A DNA stretch of 64,000 nt from Niveispirillum cyanobacteriorum. GTDB taxonomy: Bacteria; Pseudomonadota; Alphaproteobacteria; Azospirillales; Azospirillaceae. The stretch covers positions 310,001 to 374,000 of the forward strand of contig NZ_CP025613.1 of assembly GCF_002868735.1 (NCBI RefSeq). The letters run 5' to 3'. Shown piece by piece: positions 12,307 to 57,270 of this stretch. The notes below the pieces were generated by a model, which ran no database searches, was not told where the DNA came from, and saw only the letters and a program-made list of their open reading frames with translations. Position 1 is the stretch's first letter, and every line of letters begins with the position of its first letter. The position numbers were made by a program, and so were the translations under genes.

Positions 12307-12336
12307 CAGGGCAAGACCGTAAGAAGCAGGACCGAC

Positions 12337-24261: not shown

Positions 24262-24286
24262 CATCCAATTATTGGGGACCAAACCC

Positions 24287-34646: not shown

Positions 34647-35474
34647 TCACCGCCGGCTTTGACCTGTCCGTTCCAGCAGATCGATGGACCATTCGACATG
34701 GCTATCCATGACGGCGGCGGCGGTGCGGGCGTCCCCGGCCAGCACGGCATCAGCCATGCGGTTGTAATTGGCGATATAGCCCGGGATATGCAGGCGCATG
34801 TCGATGGTGCCGGCAAGGAACCGGTTCCAGTATTCCAGGTTGAGCAGCCCCAGCAGGTAATCCACGTAGGGCTTCTGCCCAATCTCATTCAGCAGATAAT
34901 GGAAATCGTTCAGCACCAGATAGAATTTGTAGGAAGGCGGTGCATCACGGGCCGCGCGGATCCGGGCAATGGCCTCCTCCACACGCTGCCGGTTGTCGCC
35001 CTCGCCGATGCGCCGTGCGGCCGCCGTGACCCCCACCTTGGCGATGGGGCCCGTAACCTCATAGATCTGGATCAGGTCGGCCAGTGACAGCTCGCGCATA
35101 ATGGCGCCCTTGTCGGGCAGCAGTTCGACCAGCCCCTGGCCCGCCAGAATATGCAAGGCCTCCCGTACCGGGGCGCGGCTCACCCCCAGACGTTTGGCCA
35201 GCTCTGCCGCCTTGATCCGCTGTCCAGGCCGCAGGACCCCCTCATCCAGGCTTTCCATCAGCGTTTCGTGCACACGCTGCACCAATGTCGTTTTGGTGCT
35301 GCCATCGGCCATCAGTTTTGGCGCACCGAAGGGCGATGGCGCCCCGGCAATGTCGGACGGAAACTCGTCAGCGTCCTCTTCCGTTTCCGACGGCACGCGC
35401 GGCACATGGGGCGGCGCCTTCGTCTTCTCGCCTTTACGCTCCCTGCCCGGCGCGTCGGTCGATACCTTTGTCAT
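34647..35474 (-). CDS. GntR-family (FCD-type) transcriptional regulator
   Basis: The 275-residue protein carries a charged, probably disordered N-terminal extension of about 60 residues. A GntR winged helix follows at about 63-130 (GQRIKAAELAKRLGVSRAPVREALHILAGQGLVELLPDKGAIM), then an all-helical FCD effector domain (about 135-260) with NDFHYLL and an HIPGYIANYNRM segment that supplies metal-binding His. FCD regulators usually sense carboxylic acids and repress. A GTCGTA-N6-TACGAC repeat lies 63 bp upstream. Likely targets are the adjacent transport and catabolic genes. Confidence 0.9.
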   Translation of the reverse strand: MTKVSTDAPGRERKGEKTKAPPHVPRVPSETEEDADEFPSDIAGAPSPFGAPKLMADGSTKTTLVQRVHETLMESLDEGVLRPGQRIKAAELAKRLGVSRAPVREALHILAGQGLVELLPDKGAIMRELSLADLIQIYEVTGPIAKVGVTAAARRIGEGDNRQRVEEAIARIRAARDAPPSYKFYLVLNDFHYLLNEIGQKPYVDYLLGLLNLEYWNRFLAGTIDMRLHIPGYIANYNRMADAVLAGDARTAAAVMDSHVEWSIDLLERTGQSRR

Positions 35475-36426: not shown

Positions 36427-36533
36427 TCCGGTCGGGGCAGGGAGGTATACGGCACGGCAATCCATGGTGATTGCCGAATGCATCGTTACGCCTACCGCTC
36501 TTTCATATAAGAATACAAATGGAGGACGGGGAC

Positions 36534-38702
36534 ATGAACATGTTGAGGCTTCGCACCCTGTTGTTGACCAGTGCTACTGGCTTAGCATTGACCTCCCTGC
36601 CGGCCCTTGTACAGGCGGCGGATGGAACGATGCTGGATGAGGTCATCGTCACCGCGACCAAGATGGGCGACACAAGGTTGCAGGAAACACCCATCGCCAT
36701 CACCGCCTTCACGGCCGATGCGCTGGAGAAAACCGGTATCAAGGATGTCCGCGATCTGGCCGGTTCCACCCCCAATTTGGTGGTGGCCCAGAATGGCGCC
36801 TTCGCCCAGCTCTATATCCGCGGCATCGGGTCCAACAATGTTTTCGCGGGTTCGGACCCCAGCACGACGGTCCACATGGACGGCGTCTACATGGCCCGTC
36901 CCGCCGCCGTCTTCAACAACTTCCTGGATGTGGAGCGGATCGAGGTGCTACGCGGGCCGCAAGGCACGCTCTATGGCCGCAACTCGGTCGGCGGCACCAT
37001 CAACATCGTCTCCCGCCTGCCTGACAACAACGTCAAGGCCAAGGCACAGGCCACCATCGGCAACTATGACCTCTATCGCGGTGAGGCCTATGTCAGTGGC
37101 CCCCTGATCGAAGACAAGCTGTATGGTAGCGTGTCCCTTATGGGCAGCAAGCATGACGGCTATTTCAAGAATGTTGTCCCGTCCGGCAATGACCGCGCCA
37201 GCGAGAATACCTGGGGTACCCGCGCCATCCTGCGTGCCACACCGAATGAGGCGCTGGAGATAGTGTTCCGGGCCGACTATCTGGCTGATTACGGCCATTT
37301 TGTCGGCAACCAGGCGCTTTTGCTGCCGTTCCGCCCCGTGGCCGGCGGCGCGCTGGACCCGGTGACGGAAGCCATCCGGGGCGACTGGCACAAGGTGGCG
37401 CTGGACAGCCCCAGCGACACCGACCGCAAGATCAAGGGCGTGTCGGCGGAGATCACCTACAGTTTCTCCGATGCCGCTGTGCTGAAATCTCTGACTGCCT
37501 ATCGGAAAAGCGATCTGAACTATGTCAACGACACCGACGCCACCGACCTGCACCGCCAGGAAACGCGGCAGCAGGAGTACCAGGATCAGTTCTCCGAGGA
37601 ACTGAACCTGTCAGACCGGGTTAATCGGTTCAAATATGTGCTTGGTTTCTATTATTTCGACGAACATATCGACACGGATTCCACGGTCACCGCCTTCAAC
37701 CTGAACCGCGTGACCAATCCGGCCCCGACCGTCGACACAAAGGCCTGGTCCGGATACGGACAAGTATCATTCGATCTGACGGATCAATTCACCCTGACCG
37801 CCGGCATCCGCTACACGGATGAGAAGAAGGATTTCGACCAGTATCTGAACATCTACACCCTGTCGACCGGGTCGCCGCTGGCCACGTATCCACGCCGCTA
37901 TCTGAACAAGGGCCATTACACGGCCTGGACCCCGAAATTCGGGGCGGAATACAAGGTGACGGAAGATGTGATGCTGTACGCATCAGCGACGCGCGGGTTC
38001 AAATCCGGCGGCTTCAACTTCTCCTCTGGCAACACGGCGCAGGGTTTTGCCCCGGAAACGCTGTGGAGCTATGAAGCCGGTTTCAAAACGGAGTTCGCAG
38101 ACAAGCGCGTGCGCCTGAACGGGTCGGCCTTCACCTATGATTACAAGGACTTGCAGGTACAGTCCTTCCTGGTGCCTGGCGTCACCGACATCACCAATGC
38201 CTCAGACGCCAAGGTGGATGGGCTCGAACTGGAACTGACGACGCGTCCCGTAACCGGCCTGGATATCGGGGGCACGCTGACCTATCTGGACGCGCGCTAT
38301 AAAAACTATCCGCAGGCGCCGATCCCCGGCACCAGCCCCGCCGTCACCATCGATGCATCGGGCAAGTACCTGAACTCCTCCCCCAAATGGGCCTACACGC
38401 TGTATGGCCAGTACAGTTTTGATGTCGCCGGCGGCTCGGCGTTTGTGCGTGGTGAGTATGGCTGGAAGGACCGGCAATATTTCACTGTCATCAATGACGC
38501 GGTGCAAACCATGGGCAGCTATGACCTGCTGAATGCCAGCATAGGGTTCGCCCCGGACGGCGGCAATTGGCAGGTGGTGCTGTACGGTCGCAACCTGTCC
38601 GACACGCAATATCTGGTTTCCACGGGCACGTTCACGGCGGTGCCAGCGGGTACGCCGGGCGACCCGCGCACCTATGGCCTGCGCCTCACCTACACCTACT
38701 GA
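36534..38702 (+). CDS. TonB-dependent receptor
   Basis: The start ATG at 36534 directly follows GGAGGACGGGG and begins a signal peptide ending ALVQAA; the product has 722 residues. The TonB box-like DEVIVTATKM is near 33-42. The plug contains LYIRGIGSNNVFAGSDPST and VERIEVLRGPQGTLYGRNSVGGT near 145. The barrel ends in LRLTYTY. It opens a second catabolic operon; the serine hydrolase gene starts 23 bp after its stop. Ligand probably an ester or alcohol processed by the following enzymes, which is an inference from context. Confidence 0.92.
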   Translation: MNMLRLRTLLLTSATGLALTSLPALVQAADGTMLDEVIVTATKMGDTRLQETPIAITAFTADALEKTGIKDVRDLAGSTPNLVVAQNGAFAQLYIRGIGSNNVFAGSDPSTTVHMDGVYMARPAAVFNNFLDVERIEVLRGPQGTLYGRNSVGGTINIVSRLPDNNVKAKAQATIGNYDLYRGEAYVSGPLIEDKLYGSVSLMGSKHDGYFKNVVPSGNDRASENTWGTRAILRATPNEALEIVFRADYLADYGHFVGNQALLLPFRPVAGGALDPVTEAIRGDWHKVALDSPSDTDRKIKGVSAEITYSFSDAAVLKSLTAYRKSDLNYVNDTDATDLHRQETRQQEYQDQFSEELNLSDRVNRFKYVLGFYYFDEHIDTDSTVTAFNLNRVTNPAPTVDTKAWSGYGQVSFDLTDQFTLTAGIRYTDEKKDFDQYLNIYTLSTGSPLATYPRRYLNKGHYTAWTPKFGAEYKVTEDVMLYASATRGFKSGGFNFSSGNTAQGFAPETLWSYEAGFKTEFADKRVRLNGSAFTYDYKDLQVQSFLVPGVTDITNASDAKVDGLELELTTRPVTGLDIGGTLTYLDARYKNYPQAPIPGTSPAVTIDASGKYLNSSPKWAYTLYGQYSFDVAGGSAFVRGEYGWKDRQYFTVINDAVQTMGSYDLLNASIGFAPDGGNWQVVLYGRNLSDTQYLVSTGTFTAVPAGTPGDPRTYGLRLTYTY

Positions 38703-38725: not shown

Positions 38726-39883
38726 ATGTCTTCTGCATTCCCGCTTCATATCGATGGCACCTGCGACCCGGATTTTGCCGGGTTGCGGGAGACCTTCATC
38801 GAGAATTTCCGCAGCCGGGGCGAAATCGGTGCCGCCGTCTGTGTCTATCGCGACGGGAAGAAGGTCGTGGACCTGTGGGGCGGGGTGGCAGATGTCGCCA
38901 CCGGCGCCCTTTGGCAGCGGGATACGATCTGCTGCATGATGTCCGTGGGCAAGTCCATGGCGGCGCTGTGCCTGCTGATGCTGATCGACCGGGGCACGGT
39001 CGATCTGGAAGCCCGCGTCACCGACTACTGGCCCGAATTCGGTCAGGCCGGCAAGGAAAAGACCACCGTTCGCATGCTGCTGTCGGCCCTTTCCGGTGTT
39101 CTTTATGCTGATGCCGCCCCCGACGGTTCCGCCTATGACTGGGATGTCATGTGCCGTGCGCTCGCCGCGCAGAAGCCGGAATGGGAACCGGGCACCCAGG
39201 GCGCCTATCATTCCATGACCGCCGGCTATCTGCTGGGGGAAATGGTGCGCCGGGTGGATAGCCGCATGATCGATGTGTTCTTCCGGGAAGAGATCGCGCG
39301 GCCGCTAGGCATCGATTACGGGTTCGGGGTGGCGGAAGCGGACATGCACCGCGTATCCGATATCATGCCCAATCCCGGCAGCGTCACCTTTGTGCAGGCC
39401 AAGGACAAGACCACCAAGCTGGGCCGGGCCTGGCGTGTGCGGCCCAGTTCGGCTAACCCCTATAATGAACCCGCCTATCGTCGGGCCGTGTTCCCGTCAT
39501 CGAACGGCCATGGCAATGCCCGCGCCATCGCGCGGGTCTATGCGGCGCTGGCCAATGGCGGGACGTTGGACGGTTTCCATCTGCTCTCCCCCGCCCTGGT
39601 GGAGGCAATGCGCACCGAAAGCTGGCGCGGCACCTGCGGTATGACCGACCGGCCCTTCCGCTACGGCCTGGGCCTGTTCTTGAACTACCCGCCCATGCTG
39701 GGCTTCGGGGCCAATCCCCGTGCCTTCGGCCATCCGGGTGCCGGTGGTGCTGTCGGTATCGCCGATCCCGAAGCTGGCCTCGCCTTCAGCTACAGCCCGA
39801 ACCTGATGTGTGCCGGTGCCGGCATGGGTGAGCGGTGCGAGGCGCTGGTGCAGGCGGCCTTGGGCAAACAAGCCACCATCTGA
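38726..39883 (+). CDS. Serine hydrolase of the class C beta-lactamase/esterase family
   Basis: The start is the ATG at 38726, within 23 bp of the receptor stop; the product has 385 residues. The catalytic SxxK is Ser73-Val-Gly-Lys76 (MMSVGKS). The second motif is Tyr161-His-Ser163. HPGAGGAVGIADPEAGLAFSY near 335-355 covers the third (KTG-like, here GAGG) strand. Family members of this kind (EstB-like) hydrolyse esters and not beta-lactams. No signal peptide is visible, so it acts in the cytoplasm. It may cleave an imported ester for the next SDR. Confidence 0.87.
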   Translation: MSSAFPLHIDGTCDPDFAGLRETFIENFRSRGEIGAAVCVYRDGKKVVDLWGGVADVATGALWQRDTICCMMSVGKSMAALCLLMLIDRGTVDLEARVTDYWPEFGQAGKEKTTVRMLLSALSGVLYADAAPDGSAYDWDVMCRALAAQKPEWEPGTQGAYHSMTAGYLLGEMVRRVDSRMIDVFFREEIARPLGIDYGFGVAEADMHRVSDIMPNPGSVTFVQAKDKTTKLGRAWRVRPSSANPYNEPAYRRAVFPSSNGHGNARAIARVYAALANGGTLDGFHLLSPALVEAMRTESWRGTCGMTDRPFRYGLGLFLNYPPMLGFGANPRAFGHPGAGGAVGIADPEAGLAFSYSPNLMCAGAGMGERCEALVQAALGKQATI

Positions 39884-39906: not shown

Positions 39907-40680
39907 ATGTCCGATTTCAAAGGAAAAGTAGCCCTGGTGACCGGCGGCAGCTCCGGTATTGGCGCTACGGTGGCTCAGGCGCTGGGCGCCCAGGGCGCCC
40001 ATGTCGCCATCGTGGCCAGCAGTTCCATAGCCAAGGCCGCCCCCGTGGTGGACGCGGTGAACGCAGGCGGCGGTACCGCGCGTGCCTATGCCGCTGATGT
40101 CCGGGATGAGGGGGCGGTCGCCACCTTGCTGGAGCAGGTGACGGCCGATTTCGGTGGTCTGGACATCCTTGTCAATGCTGCCGGCGTGTTCGAGCCCAGT
40201 CCTGTTGGTGGTACGGCGGCAGATAGCATGAACCGTATGGTCGATATCAACCTGAAGGGCACCTGGAACTGCTTGCAGGCCGCCGTGCCGCACCTGAAGG
40301 CGCGGGGGCGGGGCAAGGTGCTGAACTTCGCCTCCGTCGCCGGGACCATCGGGGTCAAGGGCTTCGCCGTCTATTGCGCATCCAAGGCCGCCATCGTGAT
40401 GATGACGCGGGTGGCCGGCGCCGAACTGGCACCCTTCGGCATCAATGTCAATGCCGTTGCCCCCGGCAATACCGAAACCCCGATGAACGAGGCGATGCGC
40501 ACCGCGCCGGAAATGGCAGAGATCCTGGATGGCATGCGCCGCATGACGCCCAGCGGTGTCACCTTCTCCAAACCGGAAGAGATTGCCAGTGCAGTGCTCT
40601 ACCTGTTGTCGGATGCCGCACGGCCAGTCTTTGGCACGACGCTGGTCATTGATGAAGGCATCTCTGCTGCCATTGGCTAA
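39907..40680 (+). CDS. Short-chain dehydrogenase/reductase
   Basis: The start ATG at 39907 follows GGGAGGGGAAA; the product has 257 residues. The cofactor motif TGGSSGIG is at 12-19, NAAG at about 90-93, and the catalytic Ser143, Tyr156 and Lys160 (VYCASK) are in register. It should oxidise an alcohol to a ketone or the reverse with NAD(P). It sits 24 bp after the serine hydrolase gene. In this operon a secondary alcohol to ketone step would supply a substrate for the HyuAB pair downstream. Confidence 0.9.
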   Translation: MSDFKGKVALVTGGSSGIGATVAQALGAQGAHVAIVASSSIAKAAPVVDAVNAGGGTARAYAADVRDEGAVATLLEQVTADFGGLDILVNAAGVFEPSPVGGTAADSMNRMVDINLKGTWNCLQAAVPHLKARGRGKVLNFASVAGTIGVKGFAVYCASKAAIVMMTRVAGAELAPFGINVNAVAPGNTETPMNEAMRTAPEMAEILDGMRRMTPSGVTFSKPEEIASAVLYLLSDAARPVFGTTLVIDEGISAAIG

Positions 40681-40709
40681 GCATAGAACAGTAAATAGGG
40701 GGATCTGGA

Positions 40710-42011
40710 ATGACGGACAGCCTGCGCAAAGACAGCACCTACGCCTGGTATGTGGCCGTGCTGCTGTCTGTTGCCCACCTGATCTCCTTTGTGGACCGGT
40801 TCGTGATGAGCTTGGTTCTGGTCCCCATCAAGACCGAACTGCTGCTCAGCGATACGCAGTTGGGGCTGCTGCATGGTACCGGCTTTGTCATCCTCTACAC
40901 GGTTGCGGCTATTCCGCTGGGCTGGATGGCCGACCGGGCCAACCGCCGCAATATCATCGTCGCGGGTATCCTGGTCTGGAGCTTGGCGACGGCGGCCTGC
41001 GGCCTTGCCAACTCCTTCAACAGTCTGTTCCTAGCCCGTATCGCGGTCGGGTTTGGGGAGGCCGCCTTGGTGCCGGCGGCCATGTCGCTGATCGCGGCCT
41101 ACTTCACCCGGTCCAAACTGTCCCGTGCGGTCAGCACGTTCACCATGGGTGCCTCGCTGGGCAAGTCGGTGGCGCTGATCGTGGGTGGGATGATCCTGGC
41201 GTGGTTGACGGCACGCGGCGGGGCGATGCTGCCGGGTTGGGGGCACCTGTCGCCCTGGCAGGGGTTGTTCATCGCGGCGGCGGCGCCTGGCGTACTGGTC
41301 GCCCTACTGCTGCTGACGGTGCGGGAACCGGCGCGGCCCGTCAGTGCGATGGCCAAGCCGGGTCTGCGGGAGGTGTTCGCCCATATCGGTCGGCACCGCG
41401 CCGCCTATCTGCTGCACACGGCGGCGGCCGCATCGGCGATTCTGCTGGTTCAGTCCTACGCCGCCTGGTCGCCCACCTTCTATATCCGCAATTTCGGTTT
41501 GGCACCGGCAGAGGCGGGGTATCTGGTGGGCATGGTGGTGCTGGTGGCGGGCCCGGTCGGGCATTTGACGGGCGGTTATCTGACCGACCGGTTGCAGGGC
41601 CGGGGCGTGACAGGCGCCCCCGGTCTGGTGATTGCCGGCATGCTGCTGCTGTCCCTGCCACTGGCCACCCTGTTCTGCACGACGGAGAATGAAACCCTGT
41701 CGCTGCTCAGCTACGCCCTGCTGAACATCACGCTCACCGCCGCCGCCCCGCCGGGTCTGTCCGGCATCCAGTTGCTGACGCCGGAGCGGCTGCGCGGCGT
41801 CACAAGTGCCTGTTTCATGGCGGCGGTCACCTTCACCGCCATCGGCATGGGACCGGCCAGCATCGGCATCTTCACCGACCGGGTGTTCGGGGATGACAAG
41901 GCGCTGGGGTCGTCCTTGCTGTTGGCAACCTTCATCTTCGGTCTGCTCGGTGCCTTTGTTGCCTGGTTCAGCCGGGCGCCGGCCCGGGCCGCCATGACCG
42001 CCGACGCCTGA
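40710..42011 (+). CDS. MFS transporter, spinster-like
   Basis: The 433-residue protein has about 12 hydrophobic segments. TM1 carries FVDRFVMSLVLVPIKTEL and the 2-3 loop reads GWMADRANRRNII, the pattern of spinster-type MFS proteins common in sphingomonads and allied Alphaproteobacteria. Transport direction and substrate are not evident. The gene lies 29 bp after the SDR gene and belongs to the same operon, so it likely moves the substrate or an intermediate across the inner membrane. Confidence 0.87.
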   Translation: MTDSLRKDSTYAWYVAVLLSVAHLISFVDRFVMSLVLVPIKTELLLSDTQLGLLHGTGFVILYTVAAIPLGWMADRANRRNIIVAGILVWSLATAACGLANSFNSLFLARIAVGFGEAALVPAAMSLIAAYFTRSKLSRAVSTFTMGASLGKSVALIVGGMILAWLTARGGAMLPGWGHLSPWQGLFIAAAAPGVLVALLLLTVREPARPVSAMAKPGLREVFAHIGRHRAAYLLHTAAAASAILLVQSYAAWSPTFYIRNFGLAPAEAGYLVGMVVLVAGPVGHLTGGYLTDRLQGRGVTGAPGLVIAGMLLLSLPLATLFCTTENETLSLLSYALLNITLTAAAPPGLSGIQLLTPERLRGVTSACFMAAVTFTAIGMGPASIGIFTDRVFGDDKALGSSLLLATFIFGLLGAFVAWFSRAPARAAMTADA

Positions 42012-42092
42012 TCTTCACCCTTCAACACCATGACGGACGGCCGCCCCCAAGGGCGCCGAAGGGGCGGACTTTGCCCCGAATTCAGGAGAGAA

Positions 42093-43031
42093 ATGATGCG
42101 TAAATCCGACAAGGTCATCATCACTTGCGCTATCACCGGGTCGCTGCACACTCCGACCATGTCGCCCTACCTGCCCATCACCCCGCAGGAGATCATCGAC
42201 CAGTCGGTGGAAGCGGCAGCGGCCGGTGCGGCCATCCTGCACCTGCATGCCCGCGACCCGATCGATGGCCGACCCTCGCCCGATCCCGACCTCTTCATGC
42301 AGTTCCTGCCGCAGATCAAGCAACGCTGCGATGCCGTCATCAACATCACCACCGGCGGCGCGCCGGGGTTCAGCGAGGATGACCGGCTGGCCGCCCCCTT
42401 ACGTGCCCTGCCGGAAATGACCTCGCTGAACATGGGGTCGATGAATTTCGGCGTGTTCGGGCTGGCCGACAAATATCCGGAATGGAAGCATCCTTGGGAA
42501 AAGCCGTTCCTGGAGGCCAGCAAGCGGTTTGCTGCCAACCATAATTTCGCGCTGATCGAACGCATCATCCGCGAGCTGGGCGAAGGGCATGGCACCAAGT
42601 TCGAATATGAATGCTACGATCTGAGCCATCTGTACAATGTCGCACATTTCGCCGAACGGGGCCTGATCAAGCCGCCCTTCCTGATCCAGGGGATTTTCGG
42701 TGTGCTGGGCGGAATTGGTCCCGACCTGGAAAATCTGACGGCGATGAAGCAGACGGCGGACCGGCTGTTCGGCAATGACTATTACCTGTCGGCCTTTGGC
42801 ATCGGCCGCATGCAGATGCGGTTCCTGACCCTGTCGGCCATGCTGGGCGGTAATGTCCGCGTCGGGCTGGAAGACAGTTTGATGATCGGGCGCGGCCAGT
42901 TGGCCAAAAGCAATGCCGAACAGGTCGCCAAGATCCGGACCATCCTGACCGAACTGGGCATGGAGATCGCCACCCCGGACGAGGCCCGCGCCATGCTGGC
43001 GCTGAAGGGTCCGGACCGGGTTGCATTTTAA
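42093..43031 (+). CDS. Beta-keto acid cleavage enzyme (BKACE, DUF849 family)
   Basis: The start is ATGATG at 42093 after AGGAGAG; the product has about 312 residues. The metal-binding LHLHARDP is near 49-56, and the late acidic ligand appears in VRVGLEDSLMIGRG near 265-278, with SMNFG between them. BKACE enzymes, for example 3-keto-5-aminohexanoate cleavage enzyme, combine a beta-keto acid with acetyl-CoA to give acetoacetate and a new acyl-CoA. The gene is 15 bp upstream of a HyuA/HyuB pair that could make a beta-keto acid. The substrate pocket specificity cannot be read from sequence. Confidence 0.9.
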   Translation: MMRKSDKVIITCAITGSLHTPTMSPYLPITPQEIIDQSVEAAAAGAAILHLHARDPIDGRPSPDPDLFMQFLPQIKQRCDAVINITTGGAPGFSEDDRLAAPLRALPEMTSLNMGSMNFGVFGLADKYPEWKHPWEKPFLEASKRFAANHNFALIERIIRELGEGHGTKFEYECYDLSHLYNVAHFAERGLIKPPFLIQGIFGVLGGIGPDLENLTAMKQTADRLFGNDYYLSAFGIGRMQMRFLTLSAMLGGNVRVGLEDSLMIGRGQLAKSNAEQVAKIRTILTELGMEIATPDEARAMLALKGPDRVAF

Positions 43032-43046
43032 GGGTGGGGATAGATC

Positions 43047-45122
43047 ATGCGCTTTGCAACCGATACCGGCGGCACCTTCACCGATCTGGTGGTGGAAGAG
43101 GATGATGGCCGGATCAGCATGTACAAGGCCTCCACCGTACCGGGCGATCCGGTGCAGGGGGTGCTGGCGGCCCTGACCCTGGCAGCCAAGGATCGCGGGC
43201 TGGATCTGGCAACCTTGCTGGACCGGGGCGATACCTTCATCCATGGCACGACCCACGCCATCAACGCCATCATCACGGGCCGCACGGCGCGCGCCGCGCT
43301 GCTGGTGACCGAAGGGCATCGCGACATCCTGACCCTGCGCGAGGGGGGGCGGATCGAGCCGTTCAACCACTCGGTCCCTTATCCCAAGCCCTTCATCCCC
43401 CGCGCGCTGACCTTCGAGGTGCCGGAACGCCTGATCCATGACGGGTCGGTCCATCAACCGCTGGATGAGGTGGCGCTGGCCGCCATCATCGAGAAGCTGC
43501 GGGCAGAGAAGGTGGAGGCGGTGGCTGTCTGTCTTCTGTGGTCCACCATCAATCCCGCGCATGAATTGCGGGTGGGTGCCGCCCTGGCGGCGGGTCTGCC
43601 CGGCGTGCCGGTTAGCCTGTCGCATCAGGTGAACCCCAGCTTGCGGGAATTCCGCCGGGCCTCATCCACCGCCATCGATGCCGCGCTGAAGCCGCTGATG
43701 GGCCGCTATCTGGGCGGGCTGGAAGCGCGGATGCGCGAAGCGGGGTTCAAGGGAAAGGTGATGGTGCTGACCAGTTCCGGCGGCATGATGCCGGCGGCGG
43801 AGGTCGCGGCAAACCCCATCCGCATCGTCAATTCCGGCCCCTCCATGGCTCCCATCGCCGGCCAGCATTATGCCGACCTGGAAGGCAATGGCGACAGCGT
43901 CATCGTGGCCGACACGGGCGGCACCACCTACGACATCTCCCTGGTGCGTGGCGGCCGGGTGCCGATGACGCGGGAATTGTGGATCGGGCAGCCGACGCGC
44001 GGCCATCTGGTGGGATATCCGTCGGTGGAGGTGAAAAGTGTCGGCGCCGGCGGCGGCTCCATCGCTCGGGTCGATGCCGGCGGGCTTTTGCATGTCGGGC
44101 CGGAAAGTGCTGGTGCCGTGCCGGGTCCCGTCTGCTATGGCCGGGGCGGCACGCGCCCCACGGTGACCGACGCCTCCCTGGCCCTGGGCTTCCTGGACCC
44201 CGACTTTTTCCTGGGTGGCGCCATGAAGCTGGACCTGGCCGGTGCCCGTGCCGCCATCGAACGGGATGTCGCCATTCAGCTGGGTATCAGCGTGGAGGAA
44301 GCGGCCTGGAGCATCATCCACCTGTCCACGGAGAACATGGTGCAGGCCATCGCCGACATCACGGTGGCACAGGGTATCGATCCGGCCAAATCCGTCCTGA
44401 TCGGCGGCGGCGGGGCGGCGGGTCTGAATTCCACCTTCATTGCGCGGCGTCTGGGTTGCGAACGGCTGATCATTCCGGAAACGGGGGCGGCGCTGAGCGC
44501 GGCGGGAGCCATGATGTCGGAAGTCACGGGCGAATTTGCCACCAGCCTGTTCACCAGCACCGCCCGGTTCGATTTCGCCAAGGTAAATGCCGCCCTGGCC
44601 GACCTGACCGCCCAATGTGCCGCCTTTGCCGCCCGGACGGGCGACCCGTCGCGCCCCGCCGAACCCGTCATCATGGCGGAAGCGCGATACGAAAATCAGG
44701 TCTGGGACATCGATGTCACCATGCCTTTGCACCGTTTCGCGGGGGCGGAGGATGTGGAGCATTTCCGCCGCACCTTCGATGCCGCCCACCGTCAGATATT
44801 CACCATCGACGATCCATCCTCCGCGGTGGAGATCGTGGGTCTGCGCGCCACCATCCGCTGTCAGGTCCGGCCCTTCCGGGAATTCCGCCTGGATGCCGGA
44901 ACCGCAGTGGTGGGAGAGGAGAGTCGGCGGGCCGCCTGGTTCAAGGAAACCGGCTGGGTCGATACGGCCATTTACCGGCTTGAAGCGATGGAGACTGACC
45001 GGGTCATGGCCGGTCCCTGCATTATCGAAAGCGCCTTCACCACCATCGTCGTCGATCCGGGCGCCACGGTGCAGCGATCGGTGTCGGGCAGCATCCTGAT
45101 CCATCCGGCCGGCCGCGCGTGA
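43047..45122 (+). CDS. hyuA: HyuA-type ATP-dependent subunit, second copy
   Basis: The 691-residue protein opens with FATDTGGTFTDLVVEEDDG (nucleotide loop, 3-21) and has DTGGTTYDISLVRGG near 290-304, VGPESAGAVPGPVCYGRGG and LIGGGGAAGLNSTFIARRLG near 450-470. It is clearly diverged from the copy at 22168. GGTGGGGA precedes the ATG. It should activate a carbonyl or amide substrate with ATP together with the HyuB encoded 13 bp downstream. It could be a hydantoinase/oxoprolinase or a ketone carboxylase. Confidence 0.88.
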   Translation: MRFATDTGGTFTDLVVEEDDGRISMYKASTVPGDPVQGVLAALTLAAKDRGLDLATLLDRGDTFIHGTTHAINAIITGRTARAALLVTEGHRDILTLREGGRIEPFNHSVPYPKPFIPRALTFEVPERLIHDGSVHQPLDEVALAAIIEKLRAEKVEAVAVCLLWSTINPAHELRVGAALAAGLPGVPVSLSHQVNPSLREFRRASSTAIDAALKPLMGRYLGGLEARMREAGFKGKVMVLTSSGGMMPAAEVAANPIRIVNSGPSMAPIAGQHYADLEGNGDSVIVADTGGTTYDISLVRGGRVPMTRELWIGQPTRGHLVGYPSVEVKSVGAGGGSIARVDAGGLLHVGPESAGAVPGPVCYGRGGTRPTVTDASLALGFLDPDFFLGGAMKLDLAGARAAIERDVAIQLGISVEEAAWSIIHLSTENMVQAIADITVAQGIDPAKSVLIGGGGAAGLNSTFIARRLGCERLIIPETGAALSAAGAMMSEVTGEFATSLFTSTARFDFAKVNAALADLTAQCAAFAARTGDPSRPAEPVIMAEARYENQVWDIDVTMPLHRFAGAEDVEHFRRTFDAAHRQIFTIDDPSSAVEIVGLRATIRCQVRPFREFRLDAGTAVVGEESRRAAWFKETGWVDTAIYRLEAMETDRVMAGPCIIESAFTTIVVDPGATVQRSVSGSILIHPAGRA

Positions 45123-45135
45123 AGGGGACACAAGC

Positions 45136-46896
45136 ATGAGCGACATGAAGCTGAACGGTGCCGACCTTGCCATCCTGAACAGCCGGTTCGAGGGCGTGGT
45201 GCGCAAGATGGCCAACACCCTGCTGCGCACCGGACGGTCGGGCGTGCTGAACCGTGCGCGGGATTTTTCCTGCTGTATCGTCACTGATGCGGGCGACCTT
45301 CTGGCAGCGGCGGAAAGCCTGCCCATCCATGTGCTGGCAGGTCCCGACATGATGGCCCGCACCATGAAGCAGTTCCATCCGGTGCTGAAACGAGGCGACG
45401 CCTTCCTCCATAATTCGCCCTATCACGGCTGTTCGCATCCGGCTGACCTGACGTTGCTGGTCCCCGTAATTGATGATGACGGTACCCACCGGTTCACCGT
45501 GCTGGCCAAGGCGCATCAGGCCGATATCGGCAATTCCGAACCCACCACCTATATGGGCAACGCCCGCGACCTCTATCATGAAGGCGCGCTGATCTTCCCG
45601 GCGGTTCAGGTACAGCGGGACTATCAGGACATTGGCGACATCATCCGCATGTGCGAGATGCGCATCCGCGTGCCCGAACAATGGCGCGGCGATTATTTGG
45701 CTATGGTCGGCGCCGTGCGGATCGGGGAGAAGGAACTGCTCGCCCTGGGGCGTGAGGTGGGCTGGGACCGGCTGAAAACCTTCTCCGGCCAGTGGTTTGA
45801 TTATTCTGAAGCCGCCATGGTGGACGCGCTGGCCAATCTGCCCGACGGTCAGGCCCACGCCAGCAGCACCCATGACGCCTTTCCCGGCATGCCGGAAACC
45901 GGCGTTACCATCCATGCCAAGGTGGTCGTTGACAGTGTGGCCCGGCGCATCCGCGTCGATCTGACCGATAATCCGGACAGCCTGCCTTGCGGTATGAATC
46001 TCAGTGAAGCCTGTGCCCGCACCGCCGCCATGATCGGCGTGTTCAATTCGCTGGACCACCGCGTGCCCAAGAATGCCGGGGCCTTCCGCCGCATCGATGT
46101 GGTACTGCGGCGGGGCTGCATCGCCGGCATCACCGAGCATCCCTATAGCTGTTCCACGGCCACCACCAACATCGCCGACCGCGTGGCCAATGCGGTGCAG
46201 GTGGCCATCGCCGATCTTGGCGACGGGTTCGGCATGGCAGAGGTGGGGGCCGTGATCGCCCCGTCAGCGGGGGTCATCTCCGGCATCGATGCCCGCACCG
46301 GCAAGCCCTTCGTCAACCAGATCTTCCTGGCCTTCTCCGGCGGTGCCGCCAGCCCGCAGGCGGATGCCTGGTGGACGACAGCCCATGTCGGTAATGCCGG
46401 CATGTGCTGTATCGACGGGGTGGAACTGGACGAATTGTATCAGCCGCTGCTGGTGAAGCGGCGCGCGTTCCTGACCGACAGTGAGGGGCCGGGCCGGTTC
46501 ACGGGTGCGCCCTCCACCATCGTGGAATTCGGACCACTGGTGGGGGCGTTTGACATCGGGTATGGCTCCGACGGGCATGTAAATGCCCCGCTGGGCGTGC
46601 GCGGCGGCGGGGCCGGCGGACGGGCCGACCAGTGGCTGGACCGGGCTGACGGAGGGGCGGAGGCGTTGCCTGCCTGCGCCCTGGTCAATGTGCGGGCCGG
46701 TGACATCATCACAGCCATATCCGCCGGTGGCGGCGGCTATGGTGACCCCCTGTCCCGGGCACCCGAAAGCGTGGCCGAGGCGGTACGCGAAGGCTATCTG
46801 TCGCCTGAACGCGCCCGCGACATTTATCGCGTGGCATTGGACGCGGCGGGCTATCCCGATCTTTCCGCCACCCAGGCATTGAGGGCCGCATCATGA
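45136..46896 (+). CDS. hyuB: HyuB-type subunit, second copy, without zinc domain
   Basis: The 586-residue protein has family blocks MANTLLRTGRSGVLNRARDFSC, GDAFLHNSPYHGCSHPADL and the C-terminal GGGGYGDPLSRAPE. It stops soon after the HyuB core and lacks the acetone-carboxylase-gamma-like tail of the copy at 24287. Pair two might therefore do a different reaction or rely on the tail of pair one in trans. The gene overlaps the next SDR start by 4 bp (ATGA). Confidence 0.88.
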   Translation: MSDMKLNGADLAILNSRFEGVVRKMANTLLRTGRSGVLNRARDFSCCIVTDAGDLLAAAESLPIHVLAGPDMMARTMKQFHPVLKRGDAFLHNSPYHGCSHPADLTLLVPVIDDDGTHRFTVLAKAHQADIGNSEPTTYMGNARDLYHEGALIFPAVQVQRDYQDIGDIIRMCEMRIRVPEQWRGDYLAMVGAVRIGEKELLALGREVGWDRLKTFSGQWFDYSEAAMVDALANLPDGQAHASSTHDAFPGMPETGVTIHAKVVVDSVARRIRVDLTDNPDSLPCGMNLSEACARTAAMIGVFNSLDHRVPKNAGAFRRIDVVLRRGCIAGITEHPYSCSTATTNIADRVANAVQVAIADLGDGFGMAEVGAVIAPSAGVISGIDARTGKPFVNQIFLAFSGGAASPQADAWWTTAHVGNAGMCCIDGVELDELYQPLLVKRRAFLTDSEGPGRFTGAPSTIVEFGPLVGAFDIGYGSDGHVNAPLGVRGGGAGGRADQWLDRADGGAEALPACALVNVRAGDIITAISAGGGGYGDPLSRAPESVAEAVREGYLSPERARDIYRVALDAAGYPDLSATQALRAAS

Positions 46897-47651
46897 AGCA
46901 GCGTGTCATTGTCACAGCCGGTGCCGCCGGCATCGGCCTGGCCATCGCCGAACGGTTCCTGGCCGCTGGGGCCGATGTTGCCATCTGCGACGCCGATCAG
47001 GGCCGGCTGGACAAGGTCGCCCATACCCATCCCGGCCTGATCGCCACGGCCCTTGACGTGTCGGATGCCGATGCTGTGGACCGCTTCGTCCGACAGGTCT
47101 TTGACCGTTGGGGCGGGGTCGATACCCTAGTCAACAATGCCGGTATCGCCGGTCAGATCGGCCCGATAGCCGATATCTGCGACCAGGGCTGGCGCACCTG
47201 CTTTGAGGTCAATGTGCATGGTGCCTTCTTCATGATGCGGGTCGTGACCCCGCTGATGAAGGTGCAGGGTGGCGGTTCCATCATCAATATCTCTACCGGT
47301 TCCGTCACCACGCTGCCCGTCAACCGGTCCCCCTATATCGCGTCGAAATGGGCATTGGAGGGGTTGACGCGGGCGGCGGCACGGGAACTGGGGCCCGACA
47401 ATATCCGGGTCAACGCCATCCGGCCCGGCTTTGTCGACAGTGAGCGCATGCGCGGCATCATGGCCGGCATCGCCGCCGGTCGTGGCATTGATGCAGCGGC
47501 CGTCGAGGCAGAGTTCCTGCGATACATCTCCCTGCGCGCCAAGATCCAGCCGGAGGAAATCGGGGATATGGCGATCTTCCTGTCCTCCGATGCTGCGAAG
47601 CATGTCACAGGGCAGTTGATTGCCGTTGACGGCAATGTCGAATGGGAATGA
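46893..47651 (+). CDS. Short-chain dehydrogenase/reductase
   Basis: The 252-residue protein has TAGAAGIG (8-15), NNAG (81-84), Ser137 and the Tyr148-x3-Lys152 pair (PYIASK). Its start overlaps the HyuB stop by 4 bp, so it is translationally coupled and should work on the same pathway. It shares only the SDR fold with the SDR encoded at 39907. The presence of two SDRs in one operon suggests two redox steps on hydroxyl/keto groups. Confidence 0.9.
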   Translation: MKQRVIVTAGAAGIGLAIAERFLAAGADVAICDADQGRLDKVAHTHPGLIATALDVSDADAVDRFVRQVFDRWGGVDTLVNNAGIAGQIGPIADICDQGWRTCFEVNVHGAFFMMRVVTPLMKVQGGGSIINISTGSVTTLPVNRSPYIASKWALEGLTRAAARELGPDNIRVNAIRPGFVDSERMRGIMAGIAAGRGIDAAAVEAEFLRYISLRAKIQPEEIGDMAIFLSSDAAKHVTGQLIAVDGNVEWE

Positions 47652-47665
47652 GAGAGGAAACGGCC

Positions 47666-48253
47666 ATGGCGCGCATCCCCCCGTTGACCGCTGCCGAAAT
47701 GGCGGCCCGCAACATTGACCTGTCCTTTGTCGGCGGCGATTTTCACGAACTGCCCAATAGCGTGCCCACGCTCGCCTGGCGGCCCGACATCCTGCAAGCC
47801 AGCGGCGGCCTCTGGGCCGCCATCATGCTGTCGGGCACGGTCGCTCCCGGCCTGAAATGGATGACGGGCTATATGGTCAGCATGGCTGCGGGCTGCCGCT
47901 ACTGCTCCGCCCATACCGGTACCGCGACCGCTGGCAATGGCGTGCCGGCAGACAAGCTGGCTGCGATCTGGGATTTCGAACATAGCCCCCTGTTCAGCCC
48001 GGCGGAGCGGTCGGCCCTGCGTGTCGCGGTCGGGGCGGGACAGGTCCCAAATGCCGTCAGCGACGCGGACTTTGCCGATATGGCTCTGCATTTCAGCCGG
48101 GAACAGCAGGTGGAGATCGTGGCCGTCATCGCGCTTTATGGATTTTTCAATCGCTGGAACGATACAGTTGCCACGATGTTGGAGGAAACACCCAGGCAAT
48201 TTGCAGAAAGCCACCTCTCCCCCCACGGCTGGACGCTTGGCAAACATGGTTGA
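47666..48253 (+). CDS. Carboxymuconolactone decarboxylase/AhpD-like protein
   Basis: The start is the ATG at 47666 (GAGAGGAAA upstream); the product has 195 residues. The CMD-family core is MVSMAAGCRYCSAHTGTATAG, with the redox-type Cys77-x2-Cys80-x2-His83 arrangement of AhpD-like proteins. The C-terminal helix QQVEIVAVIALYGFFNRWNDT is also typical. Because it has the CxxCxxH motif, a peroxidase/thiol role is likelier than lactone decarboxylation. It ends the region-3 operon and converges on ligI. Confidence 0.87.
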   Translation: MARIPPLTAAEMAARNIDLSFVGGDFHELPNSVPTLAWRPDILQASGGLWAAIMLSGTVAPGLKWMTGYMVSMAAGCRYCSAHTGTATAGNGVPADKLAAIWDFEHSPLFSPAERSALRVAVGAGQVPNAVSDADFADMALHFSREQQVEIVAVIALYGFFNRWNDTVATMLEETPRQFAESHLSPHGWTLGKHG

Positions 48254-48303: not shown

Positions 48304-50241
<1,938 letters not shown>

Positions 50242-50249
<8 letters not shown>

Positions 50250-50916
50250 ATTTCAACCCCATGGCGGCCAGCTTGCCGCGCATGTCATAGATATCCAGGC
50301 CCAGTTCACCGGCGGCCAGACGCGTGCGCTTGGCGGTTTCGGCGGCCTCGCGCGCCTGTGCCTTTTCCAGAACGGCAGCGGCCTTTTCGCGCGGCACAAC
50401 GCAGACACCATCATCATCGGCGATGATCACGTCGCCCGGCTGGATCGCGGCACCCGCGCACACCACCGGGACATTCACCGAACCCAGTGTGGCCTTCACG
50501 GTGCCTTGCGCGAACACGGCCTTGGACCAGACGGGGAAGCCCATCTCTGTCAGGTCGCGGACATCACGCACACCGGCATCAATGACCAGACCCCGGCAGC
50601 CGCGTGCGATAGCGGATGTCGCTAGCAGGTCGCCGAAATAGCCATCCTCACAGGGGCTGGTCGGGGCCAGGACCAGGATGTCGCCTTCGTTCAGTTGTTC
50701 GATGGCCACATGCACCATCCAGTTATCGCCCGGCGGAGCGGAGATGGTGACTGCCGACCCTGCGATGCGGGCGCCAGCATAGATGGGGCGCATATGGCTG
50801 GCCAGAAGGCCGGTACGGCCCTGCGCCTCATGCACCGTGGCTACGCCACAGCGGGCCAGCCCATCGATGACGGACGCCTCGGCGCGTTGGATGTTCTGGA
50901 CGACGATGCCGGACAT
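50242..50916 (-). CDS. ligK: 4-carboxy-4-hydroxy-2-oxoadipate aldolase
   Basis: The start is the ATG at 50916, right after CAGGAGAG; a longer frame to 51027 would overlap the lysR gene. The 224-residue protein matches the RraA-like class II aldolase family: [13 protein letters not shown] near 24-36, [19 protein letters not shown] near 85-103 (substrate loop) and [13 protein letters not shown] near 116-128 with the Arg-Asp metal site. It splits 4-carboxy-4-hydroxy-2-oxoadipate into pyruvate and oxaloacetate. It is the first gene of the leftward unit, divergent from lysR. Confidence 0.92.
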
Positions 50917-50996
50917 GGAAACTCTCCTGGGGACGATCACTGTAACTGTCTTGACCCCCGGGTCGCGGTGGGGCAATTCAGAAGCGCGCCCGTGCC

Positions 50997-51012
50997 ATAA
51001 GTTTTTGCTAAT
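50997..51012. promoter_or_regulatory. LysR-type T-N11-A box between ligK and lysR
   Basis: The 16-mer ATAAGTTTTTGCTAAT is an imperfect dyad with T-N11-A geometry. It ends 10 bp before the lysR ATG and is 80 bp from the ligK start. With flanks it matches the box at 52177 (reverse strand) at 18 of 19 positions. It suits autoregulation plus activation of ligK. Confidence 0.7.
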
Positions 51013-51021
51013 CGTGTTGCG

Positions 51022-52185
51022 ATGCACATATGGAATCTCAATCTACGTCATTTGCGTGCGGCCCTTGAGGTGATGCGCCGTGGCAGCATCAGTGCCGCCG
51101 CGCAGGCGGTGGCCCTGACCCAGCCGGCTGTGACCCAGGGGCTGGCACGGCTGGAGCGGGAACTGGGCAGGCCCTTGTTCGAGCGGCGAGCCGATGGCAT
51201 GGAAATGACAGATGCTGCCCGTCTGTTGCAGCCCCGGCTGGAGGCGGCCCTTGGCCATATCGGGTCGCCGCGCGTGACCATGGCGCAGGTTCGCGCCATG
51301 ATCCTGGTTGGTGCTGCCGGCAGTCTGGCGGAGGCGGGGCAGGCAGGAGGCCTGTCGCAGCCCACGCTGCACCGGGCTGTGAAAGATTTGTCGTTGGCAT
51401 TGCGCCGCAACATGATCGAGCGGCGGGGGCGCGGCATCGCCTTGACGGAGGCGGGACACCGGACCCTGCGTGCCTTCCGCCTGGCGCGTGCGGAACTGGT
51501 CGCCGCCTTGACGGAGTTGCGGGCGCTAGACGGGGTGGAGGTGGGGCGGGTGGCGGTGGGTGCCATGCCGCTGTCGCGGGCCCGGCTGCTGCCCGGTGCG
51601 GTTGCCACTTTTCACCGCGCCCATCCCGATATCACCATCACCATCGCGGAAGGATCGCACGCTGAGCTGATCGAACCACTGCGTGACGGTGACCTGGATA
51701 TCTTGATCGGTGCGTTGCGATTGGATAACCCGCCGGTCGATGTGGATCAGCGTCCCCTGTTCGATGATCAGCCCATGATCTTCGCCCGGCCCGGCCACCC
51801 CATCATGGATCTTTCCGACCCGTGGAGAGCCATTGCCGATTATCCCTGGGTGGTGCCGCCGACTGGCACCCCGCTGCGCACACAGTGGGAGGCGATGTTC
51901 AGGGCCGGCGGTCTGTCTGTGCCAGTTGTGCCCATCGAATGCGGATCGGTCATGACGGTGCGTCAGCTAATCCGTGACAGTGATTTCCTGACTTTGCTGT
52001 CGCCCGATCAATTGTCGGTGGAATTGCAGGCGGGTGTGGTGGCACAGGTCGGGGCAGCCCCCGGCGACCTGCGCCGAACCATCGGTATCACCACCCGCAC
52101 TGGTTGGCGTCCGACGCCGGTCCAGGCCGACTTCATCATGGCCCTGATTGCCGCCGCCCGTGGCATTGGTGGGACTATTAGCTAA
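51022..52185 (+). CDS. LysR-type regulator with two tandem HTH domains
   Basis: The 387-residue protein carries a first LysR HTH at about 8-66 ([29 protein letters not shown]). A second related helix-turn-helix lies at about 86-148 ([24 protein letters not shown]), followed by a substrate-binding domain (about 170-380). Normal LysR proteins have only one. Its length above the usual 300 residues is explained by the duplication. It is transcribed away from ligKUI and toward ligJABC, bracketed by two near-identical T-N11-A boxes. It probably activates both units in response to a protocatechuate-pathway compound. Confidence 0.9.
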
Positions 52186-52192
52186 AACTTAT
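52177..52192. promoter_or_regulatory. LysR-type T-N11-A box upstream of the lig J-A-B-C unit
   Basis: ATTAGCTAAAACTTAT overlaps the lysR stop codon. Its reverse complement matches the box at 50997 at 15 of 16 bases, and GCC flanks both. It lies 56 bp upstream of the dehydrogenase start, so it should control the rightward ligJ-ligA-ligB-ligC operon. Confidence 0.7.
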
Positions 52193-52247
52193 GGCGTGGC
52201 GTGCGAACTGATTGGCCCTCTCCACCGGTTACGGCCAGGGTTGGGCC

Positions 52248-54141: not shown

Positions 54142-54145
<4 letters not shown>
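53120..54145 (+). CDS. ligJ: 4-oxalomesaconate hydratase
   Basis: The 341-residue protein matches LigJ (ACMSD-like amidohydrolase fold). The metal motif DCHGHYTT is at 6-13, HVSGSCNACMHATGAFY lies near 179-195, IIPHGGGAVPFHWGRYRG near 220-237 and ILFGSEMVGA near 280-289. LigJ adds water to 4-oxalomesaconate, giving 4-carboxy-4-hydroxy-2-oxoadipate for LigK. The length agrees with the known enzyme. ATGA overlaps join it to the dehydrogenase gene upstream and ligA downstream. Confidence 0.92.
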
Positions 54146-56331
<2,186 letters not shown>

Positions 56332-57204: not shown

Positions 57205-57270
57205 GGGGATGCTCCCGTCACTGCTGATCCGCCGCCAGCTAACGCCCGGTCCGGTCGCTTGGCAAGAAAA

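What the first reader, a model, noticed from the sequence alone, without database searches (positions are those of the whole stretch)
39907..47651. SDR, BKACE and HyuA/HyuB in one operon: possible ketone carboxylation and beta-keto acid cleavage route
Seen: the genes are closely spaced. Known: BKACE converts beta-keto acid plus acetyl-CoA to acyl-CoA plus acetoacetate, and HyuA/HyuB relatives carboxylate ketones to beta-keto acids. Inference: alcohol to ketone to beta-keto acid to acyl-CoA, with no AMP-forming CoA ligase needed for that step.
Basis: inference. Interest (0 to 1): 0.75.

Follow-up and report, generated by a model that had tools for sequence, protein, structure and literature searches.

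The report
Conserved HyuAB-BKACE catabolic operon
A gene cluster kept together in distantly related bacteria joins an ATP-dependent enzyme of the hydantoinase family to an enzyme that breaks beta-keto acids with acetyl-CoA; it looks like an undescribed degradation route, but the proposed carbon dioxide-adding step is the less likely reading.

Summary
SDR1, MFS, BKACE, HyuA, HyuB and SDR2 lie on one strand with gaps of at most 81 bases, between an EstB-type hydrolase and a CMD/AhpD gene. The gene set recurs whole in Sphingomonas, Croceicoccus and an uncultured genome, and in part in Paracoccus. BKACE lies in 16 of 35 loci of this HyuB clade, and HyuAB-linked BKACEs sit in three separate parts of the BKACE tree.

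The ketone carboxylation half is not. By gene set, HyuB length and best tree the pair falls with ATP-dependent hydrolases. Another HyuAB pair, 16 kb upstream, groups with acetone and acetophenone carboxylases and carries their gamma domain. The tree does not settle it: AU tests keep the carboxylase placement (p 0.145; 0.131).

Best reading: HyuAB hydrolyses an inert, probably cyclic amide; an SDR makes the beta-keto acid; BKACE passes CoA from acetyl-CoA to the acyl part; in some relatives a thioesterase may free the acid. The substrate is unknown.

The parts
34647..35474 (-). GntR/FCD regulator, possible regulator of the cluster
   Evidence: Pfam PF00392/PF07729; 55-59% orthologue beside the operon in L075, L076, L077, there on the operon strand
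36471..38702 (+). TonB-dependent receptor upstream of the operon
   Evidence: Pfam PF00593/PF07715; 49-55% in L075, L076, L077
38726..39883 (+). EstB-type serine hydrolase (PF00144), possible first hydrolase
   Evidence: Pfam E 1.3e-66; best PDB matches carboxylesterases 5gmx, 8j5v and fenoxaprop-p-ethyl hydrolase 7y3z; start read from sequence
39907..40680 (+). SDR1, short-chain dehydrogenase/reductase
   Evidence: Pfam PF13561 E 5.7e-56; 47-61% in L074-L077, L181-L184; not seen in L087
40710..42011 (+). MFS transporter
   Evidence: Pfam PF07690 E 5.6e-41
42093..43031 (+). BKACE, beta-keto acid cleavage enzyme (beta-keto acid + acetyl-CoA to acyl-CoA + acetoacetate)
   Evidence: Pfam PF05853 332.9 bits; NF053538 492.9 bits over cut-off 430; only BKACE match in the genome; counterparts of E171 and R254 of BKACE15 present in the alignment, numbering offset worked out by hand
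43047..45122 (+). HyuA, ATP-binding subunit, 691 aa
   Evidence: Pfam PF01968/PF05378/PF19278; CapA 549.0 against ApcC 298.4 bits; trees; ATP motifs
45136..46896 (+). HyuB, metal-site subunit, 586 aa, no gamma domain
   Evidence: Pfam PF02538 E 1.9e-115; CapB 229.5 against ApcD 88.6 bits; D-H-D-H tetrad
46893..47651 (+). SDR2, proposed beta-hydroxy acid dehydrogenase
   Evidence: Pfam PF13561 E 6.6e-58; 43-61% in L074-L077, L087, L088, L182, L184, L195; not seen in L181, L081 or the short contig L183, 28% in L086
47642..48253 (+). CMD/AhpD-like protein, last gene of the operon
   Evidence: Pfam PF02627 E 4.8e-08; 50-56% in L075, L076, L077

Best explanation
This is a catabolic operon. The uptake system and EstB deliver a substrate. 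HyuAB, an ATP- and metal-dependent hydrolase of the caprolactamase/hydantoinase kind, opens an inert carbonyl bond, most likely a cyclic amide, and frees a hydroxy acid (inferred). An SDR, most likely SDR2, oxidises the beta-hydroxyl to a beta-keto acid (inferred from the dehydrogenases beside related BKACEs). BKACE exchanges it with acetyl-CoA to give acyl-CoA and acetoacetate (family assignment shown, substrate not). In several relatives a thioesterase gene beside the operon could then free the acid (inferred). The order of EstB, SDR1 and HyuAB is not known. My confidence is about 0.75 for the SDR-BKACE half and about 0.65 for HyuAB as hydrolase.
For: (1) HyuA/HyuB score best on caprolactamase models and structures: 549/229 bits against 298/89 for acetophenone carboxylase; 432/174 against 283/77 bits in the PDB, acetone carboxylase HyuA 193 bits. 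(2) No gamma gene: the only PF08882 match in the genome is inside the other HyuB, window 26243-26470; 5 of 11 genomes with the pair have none. (3) In the careful tree the operon clade is sister to caprolactamase CapA (95/90) while ApcC, AcxA and window HyuA2 are together (100/98); with more rows the 13 gamma-linked HyuAs form one clade (99) and the operon clade lies outside it. (4) Of 37 BKACE loci without HyuAB, 16 have a carnitine-3-dehydrogenase-like gene and 19 such a gene or an SDR within 2.5 kb on the same strand; per kb, such dehydrogenases are about ten times and SDRs about four times as dense there as in the rest of the same loci. The starred set of 23 BKACEs that holds the operon type also holds six with such a dehydrogenase. 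(5) Thioesterases of L075 and L195 match the C-terminal part of the carnitine 3-dehydrogenase model NF005716 (26.2 and 38.4 bits), as would fit an acyl-CoA product. (6) The HyuAB-BKACE link is found with BKACEs from three parts of the tree.
Against: AU tests do not reject the operon clade together with the carboxylases (p 0.145; p 0.131, one search test A; tests B and C not finished). The family motifs are shared by hydrolases and carboxylases (PMC5214803 section 7), and CapAB itself needs bicarbonate (PMC8453981, passages). The window pair that does look like a carboxylase also scores best on caprolactamase (564.2/242.9 bits), so scores alone do not separate the kinds. HyuB of the clade sits on a long stem (3.79 changes per column), so its chemistry could have changed. 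No nitrogen-handling gene was seen in the window operon. The thioesterase is absent from the window operon, that of L074 does not match the carnitine model, and none was found beside the 37 other BKACEs. 19 of 35 HyuB loci show no BKACE, though L080 has a piece of one and some contigs are short. The substrate is unknown.
Confidence: 0.5

Rival explanations
1. One reading: SDR makes a ketone from an alcohol, HyuAB carboxylates it to a beta-keto acid with ATP and bicarbonate without a gamma subunit, BKACE turns it into acyl-CoA and acetoacetate.
For: It makes the BKACE substrate directly. HyuAB and BKACE are neighbours in several lineages. EstB plus two SDRs would fit an ester of a secondary alcohol. 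The thioesterase in relatives recalls VceA/VceB, which turn vanilloyl acetic acid into vanillate in SYK-6 (PMC9618137 and PMC11837543, passages); VceB is named a thioesterase there. AU tests do not reject kinship with carboxylases. PMC5214803 section 7 thinks it unlikely that gamma takes a direct part in carboxylation.
Against: Gene set, HyuB length, model scores and best tree point to the hydrolase branch. A pair with carboxylase features exists in the same window outside the operon. In 19 of 35 loci of the HyuB clade no BKACE was seen, and I identified no other enzyme for a beta-keto acid in the two that I listed gene by gene (L192, L193).
Confidence: 0.22
2. A phloroglucinol-like route: an SDR reduces a polyphenol ring, HyuAB opens the ring, a second SDR makes a 3,5-dioxo acid, BKACE cleaves it as triacetate acetoacetate-lyase does.
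For: BKACE is over the cut-off of NF053538, 3,5-dioxohexanoate:acetyl-CoA acetone transferase. The Clostridium scatologenes pathway uses an SDR, a ring hydrolase, a dehydrogenase and TAL (PMC10470551, passages). Two SDRs are present, and an aromatic cleavage cluster is next door.
Against: The known ring hydrolase is an Mn-dependent cyclase-family enzyme assayed without ATP in the passages seen. NF053538 covers enzymes with other substrates: BKACE15 also takes beta-ketohexanoate and beta-ketopentanoate (PMC11961710, passage).
Confidence: 0.1
3. HyuAB and BKACE act in two separate pathways that share a regulator and transporter; the gene order has no biochemical meaning.
For: HyuAB is absent from 37 of 40 fetched BKACE loci and BKACE from 19 of 35 HyuB loci. 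In L087 BKACE lies 8 kb from HyuB, and in L195 the two are on opposite strands.
Against: The pairing is found with BKACEs from three parts of the tree, in Pseudomonadota and Actinomycetota, and in L072-L077 and L088 HyuA follows BKACE within about 20 bases.
Confidence: 0.1

Closest known systems
Caprolactamase CapAB of Pseudomonas jessenii (PDB 6yra)
   Same: Two-gene ATP-dependent HyuA/HyuB enzyme, HyuB 581 against 586 aa, same D-H-D-H metal tetrad and ATP motifs, best structural match, sister in the careful tree.
   Different: Far below the curated cut-offs (549.0 and 229.5 of 1000 bits). The HyuB clade is on a long branch of its own. CapAB is not known to me as a partner of BKACE and two SDRs (recalled).
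Acetophenone carboxylase Apc and acetone carboxylase Acx (PDB 5l9w, 5svb, 5m45)
   Same: Same hydantoinase/ketone carboxylase family; their product is a beta-keto acid.
   Different: Both have a gamma subunit with four cysteines and, in Apc, further subunits (PMC5214803 section 7); none here. Lower scores. Outside the gamma clade in the best tree.
Carnitine degradation (carnitine 3-dehydrogenase, BKACE-type cleavage, betainyl-CoA thioesterase)
   Same: Hydroxy acid, keto acid, BKACE, thioesterase logic; two of three thioesterases scanned match the C-terminal part of the carnitine 3-dehydrogenase model. That these enzymes act in this order in carnitine breakdown is recalled.
   Different: No carnitine dehydrogenase in the operon; the BKACE beside the over-cut-off carnitine dehydrogenase of Paracoccus is only 34-36% identical; HyuAB is no part of it.
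BKACE15 of Paracoccus denitrificans (PDB 8rip, 8rio, 9hnf)
   Same: Closest relative with tested substrates that I saw; E171 and R254 counterparts kept. The closer PDB matches 3e02 and 3e49 are called uncharacterized.
   Different: Lies in another branch of the BKACE tree than the operon BKACEs; physiological role unknown (PMC11961710, passage).
Acetovanillone and vanilloyl acetic acid routes (Hpe/Acv, VceA/VceB)
   Same: A ketone is carboxylated and the aryl beta-keto acid goes on to an acid, with a thioesterase (PMC9618137, PMC11837543, passages).
   Different: Another carboxylase class (biotin-dependent, recalled). Whether VceA is a BKACE could not be checked: the paper asked for is not held.

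Membership tests
Ketone carboxylase (Apc/Acx branch of the hydantoinase family) | Gamma subunit or domain in the gene set | tested here: not met
   No PF08882 in the operon; its only match in the genome is in the other HyuB at window 26243-26470; 5 of 11 genomes have none, in the other 6 it is on another contig or more than 16 kb away. Of the eight genomes that are both among the 19 of 289 with PF08882 and among those with a HyuB match, gamma is on another contig in seven and 19 kb away in G000.
Ketone carboxylase (Apc/Acx branch of the hydantoinase family) | HyuB-type subunit clearly longer than in hydantoinases (about 670-720 against about 570 aa) | tested here: not met
   HyuB 586 aa; lengths from PMC5214803 section 7.
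Ketone carboxylase (Apc/Acx branch of the hydantoinase family) | Falls in the carboxylase branch of the family tree | tested here: inconclusive
   Best trees place it outside; AU tests do not reject joining it to the carboxylases (p 0.145 and 0.131).
Ketone carboxylase (Apc/Acx branch of the hydantoinase family) | ATP- and bicarbonate-dependent carboxylation of a ketone | not testable with these tools
   Needs purified enzyme.
ATP-dependent hydantoinase/lactamase (Hyd branch) | Two-gene hyuAB set, Hyd subunit lengths, intact ATP and metal motifs | tested here: met
   tetrad and motifs as given for CapAB in PMC8453981 (passages). The motifs are shared with carboxylases.
ATP-dependent hydantoinase/lactamase (Hyd branch) | Over a curated cut-off of a hydrolase model | tested here: not met
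   CapA 549.0 and CapB 229.5 bits against cut-offs of 1000.
ATP-dependent hydantoinase/lactamase (Hyd branch) | ATP-dependent hydrolysis of a cyclic amide | not testable with these tools
   Needs purified enzyme.
BKACE (beta-keto acid cleavage enzyme) | Pfam PF05853 over cut-off and catalytic residues | tested here: met
   332.9 against 24.8 bits; NF053538 492.9 against 430; E171 and R254 counterparts.
Phloroglucinol pathway (PGR, DPGC, TfD, TAL) | Cyclase-family ring hydrolase DPGC in the cluster | tested here: not met
   No such Pfam hit among the operon and neighbouring proteins scanned.
Carnitine degradation | Carnitine 3-dehydrogenase (NF005716 over cut-off) | tested here: not met
   Best match in G000 104.7 bits against 592, 73 kb beyond the window end.

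The most novel reading that the evidence does not exclude
The HyuAB clade is a gamma-free ketone carboxylase that feeds beta-keto acids straight into BKACE, giving an alcohol to acyl-CoA route with one ATP-dependent carboxylation and no CoA ligase, spread across Alphaproteobacteria and Actinomycetota.
Probability: 0.2. Interest if true: 0.8.

Novelty: new variant of a known kind. Interest (0 to 1): 0.5.

Why it matters
BKACEs are a large family with few known physiological roles, and HyuA/HyuB genes are often annotated by guess (both from general knowledge). A conserved operon that ties a distinct HyuAB clade to BKACE gives both a testable context and a defined set of enzymes to assay. Either answer is useful: a hydrolase would add a new ATP-dependent amide-opening pathway, a carboxylase would show that the gamma subunit is not needed. 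In the searches (BKACE, HyuA; 20 of 128 papers listed, those with most terms first, none with both; 9 papers, none with hydantoinase) no paper held both terms; the library holds open-licence papers only.

Tried and rejected
Considered and set aside: phloroglucinol route (kept as a rival, 0.1); carnitine route proper (no carnitine dehydrogenase near the operon); AHL or tetramic acid breakdown and plant alkaloids (ideas only, nothing tested); use of the adjacent protocatechuate cluster as proof of an aromatic substrate (its amidohydrolase, tautomerase, aldolase and LigB queries found nothing in the stretches L072-L088, which reach about 10 kb from HyuB at most). Promoter and terminator scans gave numbers near the shuffled background (7 against 4.3, sd 2.2; 12 against 8.9, sd 2.7) and were not used. 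PDB matches of the two SDRs were too generic to name a substrate. The HyuB tree has very long branches and was used only as weak support. Neighbours of the dehydrogenase-linked sister BKACEs gave no clear substrate. A check of the counterpart of CapA Lys40 hit the wrong column and was not used.

Weak or faulty steps: one search failed (file names). In one search three dehydrogenase reference rows were read on the wrong strand; one search repeats the count with them corrected (16 loci within 2.5 kb; one search had 15 within 400 bases). In one search row L232 was in a wrong reading frame; it was dropped. Tests B and C did not finish and were not repeated. The 40 BKACE loci are those that I chose from the matches; three (L038, L051, L058) are cut short by contig ends. 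Loci counts include several from one genome (L181-L183 from G227; L047 and L184 from G095; L032/L072 and L033/L073 are the same places). A second try lacked fields.
Full report
What is there. The window lies in a Niveispirillum-type genome (nearest named contigs: Alpha proteobacterium AAP38 and a Niveispirillum MAG, 97 and 96% in HyuB; window = G000:C3:310001-374000). On the + strand run TonB receptor 36471-38702, EstB 38726-39883, SDR1 39907-40680, MFS 40710-42011, BKACE 42093-43031, HyuA 43047-45122, HyuB 45136-46896, SDR2 46893-47651 and CMD 47642-48253, with gaps of 23, 23, 29, 81, 15, 13, -4 and -10 bases. A GntR/FCD regulator lies on the other strand at 34647-35474. Pfam and NCBIfam confirm the families. 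The genome search found one BKACE.

Is it more than chance. Of 17 loci found by HyuB in named genomes, 11 hold a BKACE match (one of them, L082, at 28% and on the other strand) and a twelfth, L080, holds a piece of one at its contig end. GntR, TonB, EstB, SDR1, MFS, BKACE, HyuA, HyuB, SDR2 and CMD are all kept in L075 (Sphingomonas jinjuensis), L076 (Croceicoccus ponticola) and L077 (uncultured), at 49-72% identity. Paracoccus kondratievae and P. denitrificans (L074, L088) keep BKACE-HyuA-HyuB-SDR2, a thioesterase, a hydrolase and SDR1. G227 has three such places and G095 and G203 one each; in G203 (L195) SDR1, HyuB and HyuA run one way and SDR2, thioesterase and BKACE the other. Over the 35 loci with a HyuB of at least 50% identity, out of 37 given to the call, BKACE is present in 16, L080 not counted. 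Seen from the other side, HyuAB is beside BKACE in 3 of 40 fetched BKACE loci, two of these from the window's genus. In a BKACE tree of 62 rows the HyuAB-linked members lie in three separate parts: the main alphaproteobacterial group, two Actinomycetota (L081, L086), and L182 with the weak L082 beside the carnitine-linked BKACEs. Starred branches force at least three changes of the label, counted against the dehydrogenase-linked rows; these may be gains or losses. So the pairing was made, or survived replacement of the BKACE, more than once.

The HyuAB question. The operon pair has two genes, no gamma, and a HyuB of 586 aa. The gamma family PF08882 has one match in the genome, inside another HyuB of this window; 5 of 11 genomes checked (G095, G227, G463, G465, G466) have none at E 0.01 or better, and in the other 6 it is on another contig or more than 16 kb from the operon BKACE. 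NCBIfam gives 549.0/229.5 bits to CapA/CapB and 298.4/88.6 to ApcC/ApcD, all below cut-offs. The PDB search gives 432/174 bits to caprolactamase, 362/117 to N-methylhydantoinase, 283/77 to acetophenone carboxylase and 193 to acetone carboxylase HyuA; acetone carboxylase HyuB is not among the matches up to E 1e-5.

The internal contrast. A second pair, HyuA 22168-24261 and HyuB 24287-26479 (start at an ATG; the mechanical ORF starts at 24146), gives 390.6/203.0 bits on ApcC/ApcD, 372 bits on acetone carboxylase HyuA, 137 on its HyuB and a weak match to its gamma subunit. Its best scores are still with caprolactamase (564.2/242.9 bits), so it is the smaller gap, the gamma domain and the tree that set it apart. 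Its HyuB ends in a domain with four cysteines, CNC and CPGC, over the Pfam cut-off for Acetone_carb_G. Of its 12 best matches in 289 genomes, 8 (in G218, G161, G108, G357, G088, G237, G264, G106) have a gamma match about 2 kb from HyuA on the same contig. If a ketone carboxylase is sought in this window, this is the better candidate.

Trees. In the careful HyuA tree (47 rows) the operon clade of 27 rows is sister to CapA and a Paracoccus CapA-like protein (95/90), and window HyuA2, L131, ApcC, AcxA and a Paracoccus AcxA are together (100/98). With gamma-linked relatives added (48 rows, one of them misread) the gamma-linked rows form one clade (99) and the operon clade (94) lies outside it, but the deep order is open. 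AU tests do not reject the operon clade with the carboxylases (p 0.145; p 0.131 for the clade with ApcC and AcxA alone). So the tree leans to hydrolase and does not decide. The HyuB tree leans the same way with very long branches.

Function of the pair. Metal tetrad and ATP motifs are intact in the 13 HyuB and 12 HyuA rows of the clade that I aligned, so the enzyme should be active. CapAB needs ATP and bicarbonate and opens a lactam (PMC8453981, abstract and passages). I read the operon pair as an ATP-dependent hydrolase of an inert carbonyl bond. In L087 a protein with a weak match to cytosine permease, a RidA-like protein and an FMN monooxygenase lie in the cluster, in L081 an APC-type permease, in L086 a peptide-type ABC transporter (permease and monooxygenase, the rest my reading of the sequences). 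This hints at nitrogen-containing substrates but is weak.

The BKACE half. In 16 of 37 BKACE loci without HyuAB a carnitine-3-dehydrogenase-like gene, and in 19 of 37 such a gene or an SDR, lies within 2.5 kb on the same strand; no thioesterase of the kind below was found there. Within 2.5 kb, both strands, these dehydrogenases have a density of 0.100 per kb against 0.010 in the rest of the same loci, SDRs 0.078 against 0.021. The starred set of 23 BKACEs that holds the operon type also holds six dehydrogenase-linked ones. So BKACEs of this kind are often fed by a hydroxy acid dehydrogenase, and SDR2 or SDR1 can play that part here. Thioesterase genes are beside the operon in L074, L075, L077, L088, L184 and L195. 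Of the three scanned, those of L075 and L195 match residues 352-471 and 353-474 of the carnitine 3-dehydrogenase model and that of L074 matches no NCBIfam model; L074 and L075 are 4HBT-type in Pfam. BKACE15 of P. [quoted passage not shown]

First hydrolase. No EstB match was seen in L074, L088, L087, L081 and L195; they hold an alpha/beta hydrolase instead, which in L074 is related to 2,6-dihydroxypseudooxynicotine hydrolase (2jbw, E 1.6e-17). The bond that either cleaves is not known.

Verdict. Shown: gene content, conservation, family memberships, intact motifs, absence of gamma. Inferred: hydrolysis by HyuAB, the role of SDR2, the product acyl-CoA. Not known: substrate and order of the early steps.

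Noticed in passing
window 22168-26479 (+): Second HyuA/HyuB pair whose HyuB carries a C-terminal four-cysteine Acetone_carb_G domain; groups with acetone and acetophenone carboxylases. Followed by dienelactone hydrolase, two alpha/beta hydrolases, LigB-type dioxygenase and class II aldolase up to 30748.
   Followed up: partly
window 48304-56331: Protocatechuate 4,5-cleavage cluster: amidohydrolase, 4-oxalomesaconate tautomerase and CHA aldolase on -, then LysR, dehydrogenase, amidohydrolase, a LigA-like 135 aa ORF at 54142-54549 (named from its place and recall), LigB and an oxidoreductase on +.
   Followed up: partly
L079 4377-11752; L191-L193; L185-L187, L190, L199: HyuB occurs in tandem (HyuA-HyuB-HyuB, in L079 three HyuBs) and, in L185, L186, L187, L190 and L199, without any HyuA match in the fetched stretch; L185 and L199 are short contigs.
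   Followed up: partly
window 56428-58538: Citryl-CoA lyase-like protein on - beside a class III CoA transferase on +.
   Followed up: no
L181 8487-9329 and L184 16497-17345: A glutathione S-transferase is part of the cluster, beside HyuB; it has only a weak match to the beta-etherase model.
   Followed up: partly
window 39907-40680: SDR1 and the orthologues I looked at keep an ASSS-type stretch where NAD-dependent SDRs have an acidic residue (SDR2 has one); this may mean NADP. Read by eye, rule recalled.
   Followed up: no
window 1217-15990: Series of large ORFs that look like TPR proteins and glycosyltransferase-like starts (read by eye); not looked at further.
   Followed up: no
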